DNA of 56,866 nt from an uncultured Acetobacteraceae bacterium (lineage in GTDB: Bacteria; Pseudomonadota; Alphaproteobacteria; Acetobacterales; Acetobacteraceae): positions 1 through 56,866 of the forward strand of contig CADCTL010000139.1 in the NCBI GenBank assembly GCA_902805625.1, read 5' to 3'. The notes below the pieces were generated by a model. That model saw only the letters and a list, made by a program, of their open reading frames with translations. It searched no databases and was not told where the DNA came from. The position numbers and the translations under genes are program-made. Below are positions 25,718 to 29,414 of this stretch, in pieces. Each line of letters opens with the position of its first letter. Position 1 is the stretch's first letter.

Positions 25718-27036
25718 CAGGCCGACCGCGACTCGCGGATACGGGCGACGGCGTCTTCGGGGGAGACTTCCTGCCGTTCGCCCGTGGCGCGACGCTTCAG
25801 CTCCACGCGCCCGGCGGCGGCGCCGCGCGGGCCGACTATGGCCTGCCAGGGGTGGCCCATCAGGTCGGCGTCGGCGAACTTGACGCCGGCGCGCTCGGCC
25901 CGGTCGTCGTAGAGGCAGTCGGGGGCGAGCGCGGCGTGCAGCCGGTCGCACAAGGCGTCGCAAGCGCCGTCGCCCTGCTTGAGGTTCAGCACGGCGGCGG
26001 CGAAGGGCGCGACGGCATCAGGCCAGCGGATGCCGGCCTCGTCGTGGTTGGCTTCGATCAGCGCGCCGACCAAGCGGGACACGCCGATGCCGTAGCTGCC
26101 CATCTCGGGCGCCACCAGGGCGCCGTCCGGGCCGGGCACCTTGAGGTCCATCGAGATGCTGTATTTCGTGCCGAAGTAGAAAATGTGGCCGACCTCGATG
26201 CCTCGGGCGGAGACGCGACGCTCTTCCGGGATCGCGGCCCAGGCGGCTTCGTCGTGCTCCTCGTCCGTGGCGGCGTAACGGCCGGTCCAGAACTCCACGG
26301 CGGAAGAGAGGTCGCCCTCGTAGTCCGGCGCTTCGCGGAGCACGTCGAAGTCGAGCAGGTCGCGGTGCAGGAAGACTTGGCTCTCGCCGGTGTCGGCCAG
26401 GACGACGAATTCATGGCTGAGATTGCCGCCGATCGGGCCGGTCGCCGCCCGCATCGGGATGGCCTTCAGCCCCATGCGCGCGAAGGTGCGGAGGTAGGCC
26501 ACGAACATGCGCCGGTAGCTCGCCTGGGCGCCCTCGCGGTCGAGGTCGAAGGAGTAGGCGTCCTTCATCAGGAACTCGCGGCCGCGCATGACGCCGAAGC
26601 GCGGGCGCACCTCGTCCCGGAACTTCCATTGGATGTGGTAGAGGTTGCGCGGCAGGTCGCGGTAGGAGCGGGCGTAGCCGCGAAAGATCTCGGTGACCAT
26701 CTCCTCGTTGGTCGGACCGTACAGCATGTCCCGGTCGTGGCGGTCCTTGAAGCGCAGCATTTCCGGCCCGTAGGCGTCGTAGCGGCCGCTCTGGCGCCAG
26801 AGGTCGGCGGTCTGCACCGTCGGCATCAGGATTTCTTGCGCGCCGGCGGCGTCCTGCTCTTCGCGGACGATTTGCTCCACCCGTCGCAGCACGCGCCAGC
26901 CGAGCGGCAGCCAAGCGTAGATGCCGGCCGAGGTCTGGCGGACCATGCCGGCGCGCAGCATCAAGCGGTGCGAGGCGATCTGCGCGTCCGCCGGCGTCTC
27001 CTTGAGGGTGGGCAGGAAGGCTCGGGACAGGCGCAA
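25717..27036 (-). CDS. proS: Prolyl-tRNA synthetase, short class without editing domain
   Basis: Charges tRNA-Pro. The 439 residues match the short alphaproteobacterial ProS that lacks the INS editing domain found in the 570-residue E. coli type. Class II motifs are visible: [16 protein letters not shown] at the start, [19 protein letters not shown], motif 2 around [31 protein letters not shown], and motif 3 near [16 protein letters not shown]. An anticodon-binding domain closes the protein. I chose the TTG start at 27036: AGGAG lies 8 bases upstream and residue numbering then matches the family; the longer frame upstream is not conserved. Confidence 0.95.
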
Positions 27037-27238
27037 CGCGGACTCCTGGAAGCAGCACTGGGTGGGGCGCCGGACAGTAGGTGGAGGCGCGCCGCTTCGC
27101 CAGGGTTCCCGCGTTGGTAGATTTCGCCCGGCACCGGTGAAAGCTTCAGTCTCTCGGCCGCTCGAGATCGCACGAACCGGAAAGAAGTTGCGTGACTCGA
27201 GCAAGAAATCGCTTGGATGCTTGCACAATGACAGTTAC
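27037..27238. other. proS upstream region, no gene
   Basis: About 200 bases between the sRNA terminator and proS. I see no open frame with support. It should hold the proS promoter, but no convincing -35/-10 pair stands out. One copy of TTGTGCA (27222-27228 on the minus strand) lies just after the sRNA terminator. Confidence 0.4.
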
Positions 27239-27274
27239 AAAAAAAGCGGGCCGCACCCGTGAGGGTGCGGCCCG
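27239..27274 (-). terminator. Intrinsic terminator of the MmgR-like sRNA
   Basis: An 11-bp perfect GC stem (27264-27274 with 27247-27257), six-base loop CTCACG on the RNA strand, followed after one C by seven T. It also insulates proS from upstream transcription. Confidence 0.92.
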
Positions 27275-27330
27275 AGTTTAGGGAGGAAACGCCAGTCACA
27301 CGACAGGAGGAGAAACCCTCCTCCTGCCCA
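27239..27330 (-). ncRNA. mmgR: MmgR / alpha-r8 family small RNA (Rfam suhB-mmgR type)
   Basis: The minus-strand RNA has the full architecture described for alphaproteobacterial MmgR. Stem-loop 1 is CAGGAGGAG, loop GGTTT, CTCCTCCTG (27304-27326), a perfect 9-bp stem. A single-stranded linker follows, carrying exactly TTTCCTCCCT (27280-27289), the conserved family motif. The second stem-loop, CGGGCCGCACC/GGTGCGGCCCG, ends in seven T (27239-27245) and is an intrinsic terminator. Size is about 90 nt; the 5' end is inferred. In Sinorhizobium meliloti MmgR limits polyhydroxybutyrate accumulation; the role here is inference. It lies between proS and the DUF1467 gene and is preceded by a GATATC that could be part of its -10 region. 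Confidence 0.85.
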
Positions 27331-27421
27331 TGATGGTGGCGCAGACGGATATCGCTGCACAATCTCGAAGGATGCAGTGAACCGTCGGAAAAAACGGCTT
27401 TCAGGCCGACTTTGCACAAGC

Positions 27422-27446
27422 GCTGACCGGGGCTTCCCCGGTCAGC
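27422..27446 (-). terminator. Hairpin directly after the DUF1467 stop codon
   Basis: Perfect 11-bp inverted repeat GCTGACCGGGG / CCCCGGTCAGC with a three-base loop, abutting the TAG at 27447-27449. No T-tract follows, so it may be a weak terminator or an mRNA 3'-end stabiliser for the long nuo-birA-rnj transcript. Confidence 0.6.
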
Positions 27447-27710
27447 CTACCTTTCGGGCAAGGCGAGCCAGCCGGACCGGAAGCTGAGCCAATCGCTCTC
27501 GATCAGCGCGTAGACGCCGAGCCAGAGCACGGCCGATATCACGGTGGTCGCCAATACCTTGCGGAGCAGCAACGGCCGCTCGGGCGCGCCGCGCCAACCC
27601 CCCGACGCCTGGTCGCCTTCCGGGTCGGGGCGGGTGCCGATCGGCAGCACGGCGAAGAGCGCCGTCCACCAAATCAGCGCGTAGACGATGATGCCGGTGA
27701 CGACGGTCAC
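27447..27710 (-). CDS. DUF1467 family small membrane protein
   Basis: An 87-residue protein with two membrane helices. The N-terminal helix contains GIIVYALIWWTALFAVLPIG, followed by a polar loop (TRPDPEGDQASGGWRGAPER), then a second helix around VISAVLWLGVYALIES. This is the DUF1467 pattern (WW-x-x-LF-x-x-LP-x-G), found next to proS and rnj across Alphaproteobacteria. Function unknown. GTG start 22 bases after the rnj stop; a hairpin follows its stop. Confidence 0.88.
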   Translation of the reverse strand: MTVVTGIIVYALIWWTALFAVLPIGTRPDPEGDQASGGWRGAPERPLLLRKVLATTVISAVLWLGVYALIESDWLSFRSGWLALPER

Positions 27711-27732: not shown

Positions 27733-29406
27733 TCACACGCGCAACAGGTGGACCTCGACCGCGGGGCGCTTGCGCAGCCGGCGGCCGACGGCCTTGCGGA
27801 GCGCGGCCCGCGCCGCCTCCCGGAGCGCGTCGTCCTCGCGGCGGAGCGCGCTCGGCAGGCCTTCCACCGCGCGGGTGAGGTCGGCGGCTATCTGCGACGG
27901 CGCGAGGTCCGCGATCTCGAACAGACCGGGCGCGGAAACTTGCGCTTCGCCCATGACGCGGCCGGCGGCGTCCACCGCGAACGAGGCCATGACCACGCCG
28001 TTGAACAGCATCCGCTTGCGCGCGGCCAGCACGCCGCCGGAGAGCGGCAGGAGGCGGCCTTCGTCCACCGCTAGGCGGCCGGTCGGCACGCCCTCAACAA
28101 CGTCCGGCCGGCCGGGCGCCAAGCGCAGCACGTCGCCGTCCTCGACCAGCATCGGCTTGGCCCCGAGTTCCTCGGCGAGGGCGGCGTGCTCGGTGAGGTG
28201 GCGCCATTCGCCGTGGACCGGCACGGCGTAGCGGGGCTTCACCAGTTCGTAGAGGCGCTTCAGCTCGTCCCGTGCGGGGTGGCCGGAGACGTGGACCATG
28301 TGGTCGTCGGCCGTCATCACCCGGCATCCGCGGCGGGCGAGGCTGTCCTGCACGCGCAGGATGCCGCGCTCGTTCCCGGGGATCATGCGGGACGAGAAGA
28401 TCACGGTGTCGCCCTCCCCCAGCGCGATGTTGGGGTGGGTGTCGGCGGCGATCTTGGCGAGGGCGGAGCGCGGCTCGCCCTGGCTGCCCGTGCAGATGAC
28501 GAGCAGCGAGTCGTCGGGGATGAAGCCGGCTTCGTCCTCGGGCACGAAGGGCTGGATGCCCTTGAGGTATCCGCACTCGCGGGCCGCCGCCTCGGCGTTC
28601 CGGAGCGAGCGGCCGAACAACGCGACCTGCCGCCCCGCGCCTTCTGCGGCGCGGACGATGCTCTCGACGCGGGCGATGTTCGTGGCGAAGCAGGTGACGG
28701 CGACGCGGCCCTTGAGGGGGCGGATGATGGCGGCGAGGTTGCGGCGCACCTCGGCCTCGCTGCCGGAGTGCCCCTCCACCAAGGCGTTGGTCGAGTCGCA
28801 CACCATGGCCAGCACGCCCTCGGCGCCGAGGCGGGCGAAGGCGGCCTCGTCCGTGGGCGGTCCGGTCAGCGGCTCGGGGTCCAGCTTCCAATCGCCGGTG
28901 TGCAGGACCAGTCCGTGCCGGGTGCGGATGGCGACGGCCTGCGCCTCCGGCACCGAATGCGCGACGTGGAGGAATTCGAGGTCGAAGGGCGGCAGCGACA
29001 AGCGGCCGCCGAGCGGCACCGTGGTGACTCGGGCCTCTCCGTTCAGCCCCGCTTCGCCCAGCTTGCGGCGGAGGACGGCTGACACGAACGGCCCGGCGTA
29101 GATGGGGCAGCGGAGCTGCGGCCACAGGTGCGCCACCGCGCCCACGTGGTCCTCGTGGGCGTGGGTGATGACGAGGCCGACGAGGCTGTCGCGACGGTCC
29201 GCCGCCCAGGAAGGGTCGGGGACCATGATTTCGGCTTCGGGCATGTCGGGCCCGCCGAAGCCGATGCCGCAATCCACCGCCAGGAGCTTGCCGTCGCACC
29301 GGTAGAGGTTGAGGTTCATCCCGATCTCGCCGGTGCCGCCGAGCGGGATGAAGGCTAGGTCGCCGGCCGGCTGGTGGGGGCCGGCGCCCGATACGAAATC
29401 GTCCAT
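27733..29406 (-). CDS. rnj: Ribonuclease J
   Basis: A metallo-beta-lactamase-fold RNase with 5'-3' exo- and endonuclease activity, acting in rRNA and mRNA maturation. The 557 residues show the zinc motif THAHEDHVG (H82, H84, D86, H87), the beta-CASP domain (FATNIARVESIVRAAE, FGRSLRNAE, ICTGSQGEPRSALAKIA), and the RNase J/J-like HVSGHPARDELKRL and PVHGEWRHLTEHAALA motifs. Start ATG 29406, 8 bases after coaX; the open frame upstream belongs to the coaX shadow. The methylmalonyl-CoA epimerase gene often found after rnj in this synteny block is missing. Confidence 0.96.
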   Translation of the reverse strand: MDDFVSGAGPHQPAGDLAFIPLGGTGEIGMNLNLYRCDGKLLAVDCGIGFGGPDMPEAEIMVPDPSWAADRRDSLVGLVITHAHEDHVGAVAHLWPQLRCPIYAGPFVSAVLRRKLGEAGLNGEARVTTVPLGGRLSLPPFDLEFLHVAHSVPEAQAVAIRTRHGLVLHTGDWKLDPEPLTGPPTDEAAFARLGAEGVLAMVCDSTNALVEGHSGSEAEVRRNLAAIIRPLKGRVAVTCFATNIARVESIVRAAEGAGRQVALFGRSLRNAEAAARECGYLKGIQPFVPEDEAGFIPDDSLLVICTGSQGEPRSALAKIAADTHPNIALGEGDTVIFSSRMIPGNERGILRVQDSLARRGCRVMTADDHMVHVSGHPARDELKRLYELVKPRYAVPVHGEWRHLTEHAALAEELGAKPMLVEDGDVLRLAPGRPDVVEGVPTGRLAVDEGRLLPLSGGVLAARKRMLFNGVVMASFAVDAAGRVMGEAQVSAPGLFEIADLAPSQIAADLTRAVEGLPSALRREDDALREAARAALRKAVGRRLRKRPAVEVHLLRV

Positions 29407-29414
29407 GCTCTCTT

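What the first reader, a model, noticed from the sequence alone, without database searches (positions are those of the whole stretch)
27239..27330. MmgR/alpha-r8 small RNA candidate beside proS
The minus-strand RNA has a perfect first stem-loop, an exact TTTCCTCCCT single-stranded motif and a textbook Rho-independent terminator, in the order known for MmgR in Alphaproteobacteria. The linker motif and the stem 1 strand CTCCTCC are anti-Shine-Dalgarno-like, which fits a translational repressor. MmgR affects polyhydroxybutyrate storage in S. meliloti; its target in this lineage is unknown.
Basis: partly seen in the sequence, partly recalled or inferred. Interest (0 to 1): 0.7.

Follow-up and report, generated by a model that had tools for sequence, protein, structure and literature searches.

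The report
Acetobacteraceae branch of MmgR-type small RNA
This is a real small regulatory RNA gene of the known MmgR (alpha-r8) family, but it belongs to a separate, previously unlabelled branch found throughout one bacterial family, where it follows the RNase J gene and probably switches off translation of nutrient-uptake and metabolism genes.

Summary
In detail: on the minus strand, 27328-27239, there is a perfect stem-loop, an exact single-stranded TTTCCTCCCT and a strong intrinsic terminator. Rfam RF00519 (mmgR/suhB) matches at 41.1 bits, only 0.1 above its 41-bit threshold. Comparative evidence removes the doubt. A covariance model built from 32 relatives without the window scores the window at 92.8 bits (E 1.4e-22), and both stems are supported by compensatory changes. 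A -35/-10 pair at a conserved position lies just upstream.

The genome also has a copy with family-typical sequence elsewhere. The window copy belongs to a distinct paralogous branch with its own linker (GTGTGACTGGCG), found across Acetobacteraceae and nowhere else in a 289-genome class sample. Its constant neighbour is the rnj(RNase J)-DUF1467 operon upstream, not proS.

The anti-Shine-Dalgarno reading agrees with published work on SisA of Caulobacter. In this branch stem 1 keeps a purine 5' arm and a pyrimidine 3' arm despite covariation, unlike its own terminator or the sister copies. Predicted targets (transport binding proteins, 2-oxoglutarate dehydrogenase, thiolase) are only suggestive. 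No expression data were available. A known family, with a new branch.

The parts
27357..27362 (-). -35 box TTGTGC (branch consensus TTGACC/TTGTCC/TGGACC)
   Evidence: conserved upstream column block; -35/-10 pair at fixed position in orthologs
27333..27338 (-). -10 box CACCAT (xAxxxT), 18-nt spacer; predicted transcription start about 27325-27327
   Evidence: the -10 box ends 31-36 nt before the linker in 89 of 94 orthologs; 45 of 94 score >=10 against 3.4% of shuffles
27302..27328 (-). stem-loop 1: purine-rich 5' arm GGCAGGAGGAG, loop, pyrimidine-rich 3' arm CTCCTCCTGTC
   Evidence: fold; 8 of 10 pairs show double-sided covariation in 83 sequences
27290..27301 (-). branch-specific linker GTGTGACTGGCG
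   Evidence: alignments; the sister copies mostly carry CTTTCTTGGACG here
27280..27289 (-). 10-mer TTTCCTCCCT, the alpha-r8 seed, anti-Shine-Dalgarno-like
   Evidence: the same 10-mer is the proven SisA base-pairing site (PMC12559287)
27239..27274 (-). intrinsic terminator: CGGGCCGCACCC TCAC GGGTGCGGCCCG C TTTTTTT
   Evidence: helix 2 covaries, 10 of 11 pairs with double-sided changes
27240..27333 (-). whole RNA gene as matched by lineage model R1 (92.8 bits); RF00519 match 27233-27311 (41.1 bits)
27447..27710 (-). DUF1467 gene, upstream neighbour at near-constant distance
   Evidence: PF07330 E 3e-25; synteny
27733..29409 (-). rnj, ribonuclease J, the conserved anchor of the locus
   Evidence: PF22505 E 8.7e-39; synteny
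25720..27036 (-). proS, prolyl-tRNA synthetase, about 200 nt downstream (start codon TTG inferred); variable neighbour
   Evidence: PF00587/PF03129; synteny

Best explanation
The element is a free-standing small RNA gene of the alpha-r8 (MmgR/SisA, RF00519) family, about 87 nt long, in an Acetobacteraceae-specific paralogous branch located behind the rnj-DUF1467 operon. It is read from its own promoter and ends at its own terminator. With Hfq, the unpaired UUUCCUCCCU would pair with G/A-rich ribosome-binding sites of several mRNAs and block translation, mainly of transport and carbon-metabolism genes. Family, structure, promoter position and locus are shown here by comparison. Transcription, Hfq dependence and targets are inferred from SisA in Caulobacter.
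For: RF00519 at 41.1 bits. Fold z -5.8. Model built without the window: 92.8 bits, E 1.4e-22, and a clean gap between this branch (67.8-106 bits) and sister alpha-r8 copies (52 or less). Covariation: 94% of cells paired against 51-63% when slid, 234 double-sided changes against 74 in shuffles. Present in 18 of 24 family genomes (one search hits re-read). Synteny with rnj-DUF1467. Promoter pair at a fixed position. Hfq is encoded in the genome. The same 10-mer in SisA pairs with an mRNA leader upstream of the start codon, with compensatory mutants (PMC12559287).
Against: The RF00519 score exceeds its threshold by only 0.1 bit. There is no expression or Hfq-binding evidence in this lineage. The predicted target sites are also good Shine-Dalgarno sequences and are not clearly rarer in genomes without the RNA. 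The sucA site is not conserved in relatives.
Confidence: 0.8

Rival explanations
1. A cis-acting leader of proS: the stem and terminator form an attenuator in the proS 5' untranslated region.
For: Same strand and directly upstream of proS (within 1200 nt) in 77 of 98 loci.
Against: The distance to proS varies from about 130 to over 1200 nt. In several genomes the RNA stays with rnj-DUF1467 while proS is not found next to it (L053, L064, L166, L167). The 10-mer and layout are shared with alpha-r8 RNAs at unrelated loci.
Confidence: 0.07
2. A 3'-UTR-derived RNA cut from the rnj-DUF1467 mRNA, tying RNase J expression to the repressor.
For: Near-constant distance behind rnj or rnj-DUF1467, even where DUF1467 is not found and the RNA follows rnj directly.
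Against: A conserved U-tract that looks like an operon terminator and a conserved -35/-10 pair lie between the operon and the RNA.
Confidence: 0.12
3. A sponge or self-decoy: the G/A-rich 5' arm of stem 1 pairs with the 10-mer of the sister alpha-r8 copy, as CrfA does with SisA in Caulobacter.
For: In the window the 5' arm AGGAGGAGG can pair with UUUCCUCC by inspection. The purine arm is maintained in the branch.
Against: Many orthologs have arms such as AGAGAGAGG or GAATGAAG with little complementarity to the 10-mer. The arm is locked in a very stable hairpin.
Confidence: 0.05
4. Only a terminator plus a chance stem; no regulatory RNA.
For: Rfam score at threshold only.
Against: Conservation and covariation across the family and conserved promoter position.
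Confidence: 0.02

Closest known systems
MmgR (alpha-r8, RF00519) of Sinorhizobium meliloti
   Same: Order stem 1 - UUUCCUCCCU - terminator; similar length (77 nt reported, PMC8401924).
   Different: MmgR is described as the sole alpha-r8 copy in S. meliloti and affects PHB (PMC12559287, PMC8401924). The window copy is one of two in its genome, has a different linker and sits behind rnj-DUF1467.
SisA-SisD (alpha-r8) of Caulobacter crescentus
   Same: The same 10-mer, multiple siblings per genome, anti-SD signature; transporters and metabolism as targets (PMC12559287).
   Different: Stem 1 of SisA-D is described as weak; here it is strong. SisA is downstream of an FGase gene; the window copy is not. 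The CrfA sponge was not looked for here.
Sister alpha-r8 copies in the same bacterial family, including the copy at G000:C230 (L023)
   Same: 10-mer and terminator layout.
   Different: Mostly linker CTTTCTTGGACG; stem 1 of mixed polarity; 52 bits or less with the branch model.

Membership tests
alpha-r8 / MmgR / suhB (RF00519) | Covariance-model score at or above the gathering threshold (41 bits) | tested here: met
   41.1 bits; 11 of 18 branch members score above 41 and 7 below
alpha-r8 / MmgR / suhB (RF00519) | Internal unpaired 10-mer UUUCCUCCCU | tested here: met
   exact at 27289-27280, unpaired in the centroid fold
alpha-r8 / MmgR / suhB (RF00519) | 5' hairpin upstream and Rho-independent terminator downstream of the 10-mer | tested here: met
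   covariation in both helices
alpha-r8 / MmgR / suhB (RF00519) | Discrete transcript | not testable with these tools
   no RNA data; a conserved promoter pair is only indirect
alpha-r8 / MmgR / suhB (RF00519) | Hfq association | not testable with these tools
   an Hfq gene is present; binding not tested
canonical FGase-linked alpha-r8 copy (SisA-type locus) | Adjacent to an N-formylglutamate amidohydrolase gene | tested here: not met
   neighbours are DUF1467/rnj and proS; the genome's best FGase locus L105 shows no alpha-r8 match or 10-mer

The most novel reading that the evidence does not exclude
In this branch the pyrimidine arm of stem 1 (CCUCUUCC/CCUCCUCC) is a second anti-Shine-Dalgarno seed, held closed in the hairpin and opened by Hfq or by a target. 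The RNA would then be a two-seed repressor, with its gene kept beside RNase J for a functional reason.
Probability: 0.15. Interest if true: 0.55.

Novelty: new variant of a known kind. Interest (0 to 1): 0.36.

Why it matters
It adds a family-wide, syntenic branch to a widespread regulatory RNA family. The general Rfam model scores this branch low, so several members fall under its threshold. It gives a defined set of orthologs for testing whether alpha-r8 siblings share one anti-SD regulon or divide it, and whether the link to RNase J matters. For the original finding, it turns a borderline hit into a secure one.

Tried and rejected
1) Target conservation: the perfect 10-mer match at the sucA ribosome-binding site is not conserved in relatives. 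2) Target excess: GGGAGGAAA-N2-12-ATG occurs 15 times in the genome against 0 for the reversed pattern, but the full 10-mer before ATG is not clearly rarer in genomes without alpha-r8 matches, so ordinary Shine-Dalgarno use can explain the excess. 3) Transport binding proteins are 6 of 15 of these genes, against none of about 14 for one control SD word but 2 of about 5 for another; suggestive only. 5) RNAalifold on the plain alignment misplaces part of the structure because stem 1 is out of register; the model-based alignment was used instead. 6) The self-pairing/sponge idea was rejected because the complementarity is not conserved. 7) Columns inside the search pattern are invariant by construction in the named set, so their conservation was judged only from the RF00519-found set. 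8) The 2016 phylogenetic study of alpha-r8 and the 2017 MmgR paper are not in the library (for the latter), so prior mention of this locus could not be excluded.

Full report
What is in the sequence. The fold is far more stable than shuffles (z -5.8, 0 of 200).

Comparison within the lineage. In 40 relatives, RF00519 finds up to four copies per genome. Reading them shows two main sequence types. The sister copies, many beside an N-formylglutamate amidohydrolase gene, mostly carry CTTTCTTGGACG before the 10-mer. The window type carries GTGTGACTGGCG and was found in 18 of the 24 genomes of the window's family, with RF00519 scores of 32.5-51.5 bits; 7 of the 18 are below threshold. Nearly all carry Acetobacteraceae or compatible MAG labels: Roseomonas, Neoroseomonas, Belnapia, Acidiphilium, Acidocella, Elioraea, Rhodopila and others. 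The window's family is therefore very probably Acetobacteraceae (inference from contig matches; the window's genome itself is unnamed).

Locus. Among 98 such loci, the RNA lies on the same strand behind rnj and DUF1467 at a near-constant distance in most. In Acidocella and Acidiphilium, where DUF1467 is not found there, it follows rnj directly at about -170. proS follows within 1200 nt in 77 loci, at a variable distance, and is not adjacent in some genomes. Pfam confirms RNase J, DUF1467 and prolyl-tRNA synthetase in the window. So 'beside proS' is true here, but rnj is the more constant partner. The conserved region upstream contains a U-tract and a -35/-10 pair. The -10 box ends 31-36 nt before the linker in 89 of 94 loci, and 45 of 94 score at least 10 against 3.4% of shuffles. 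In the window these are TTGTGC (27362-27357) and CACCAT (27338-27333), placing the start near 27326.

Structure. A model built from 32 relatives without the window gives the window 92.8 bits, E 1.4e-22. Branch members score 67.8-106 and sister copies 52 or less. In 289 genomes of the class only the window's genome exceeds 52 bits; three small genomes of the same family lack a match. On the model-based alignment of 83 sequences, 94% of cells pair against 51-63% when slid, with 234 double-sided changes against 74 in shuffles. This alignment was fitted to the structure, so it leans towards it; the size of the effect in both helices still makes chance unlikely.

A feature of the branch. In stem 1, double-sided changes keep purine 5' and pyrimidine 3' in 72 cells and flip in 22 (mostly at one pair). 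In the terminator of the same sequences 20 keep and 126 flip. In sister copies stem 1 uses both polarities. Cells are not independent events, so this is a pattern, not a test. It suggests that one arm has a sequence role beyond pairing.

Mechanism. Published work shows that SisA of Caulobacter uses the same 10-mer, with Hfq, to pair upstream of a start codon and repress, and that its regulon is rich in transporters and metabolic genes (PMC12559287). By analogy the window RNA most likely does the same. Hfq and PhaC are encoded in the genome. Fifteen genes have GGGAGGAAA just before ATG, including six transport binding proteins, the 2-oxoglutarate dehydrogenase E1 gene, a thiolase and a PEP-mutase/isocitrate-lyase family gene. 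Controls show that this cannot be separated from ordinary Shine-Dalgarno usage. Targets remain inference.

Relation to the known. It is a member of alpha-r8 by every feature testable here, but not the canonical FGase-linked copy. MmgR in S. meliloti is a negative regulator of PHB (PMC8401924); that role cannot be transferred. I found no report of this branch in the papers searched; the main phylogenetic paper on alpha-r8 is not in the library.

Noticed in passing
L132 (CAJCJG010000050.1): A contig labelled Solirubrobacterales carries the Acetobacteraceae-type rnj-DUF1467-RNA-proS locus; probably a mislabelled or misbinned contig.
   Followed up: no
L207:1112-1132: The exact pattern also occurs in Agathobaculum without rnj/proS context or alpha-r8 layout; probably a chance match.
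   Followed up: partly
L173 1908-1999 and 2968-3064: Paracraurococcus sp. LOR1-02 has a second branch copy away from rnj/proS, with another alpha-r8-like match about 1 kb away.
   Followed up: no
L105 1567-1800 (G000:C104): The FGase gene of the window's genome has no alpha-r8 copy behind it, unlike many relatives; the second copy of the genome (C230) lies between an oxidoreductase-like and a binding-protein-like gene.
   Followed up: partly
L066, L069, L062: Weak RF00519 matches with CCTCCCTGTTGA or CCTCCCTGTTAA instead of the 10-mer, partly with CTCCCAGAC stem loops; they look like another sRNA type sharing CCUCCCU.
   Followed up: no
window 27387-27446: Between DUF1467 and the RNA there is an inverted repeat (GCTGACCGGGG/CCCCGGTCAGC) and a short CGGC/GCCG stem followed by T6, probably the end of the rnj operon.
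   Followed up: partly
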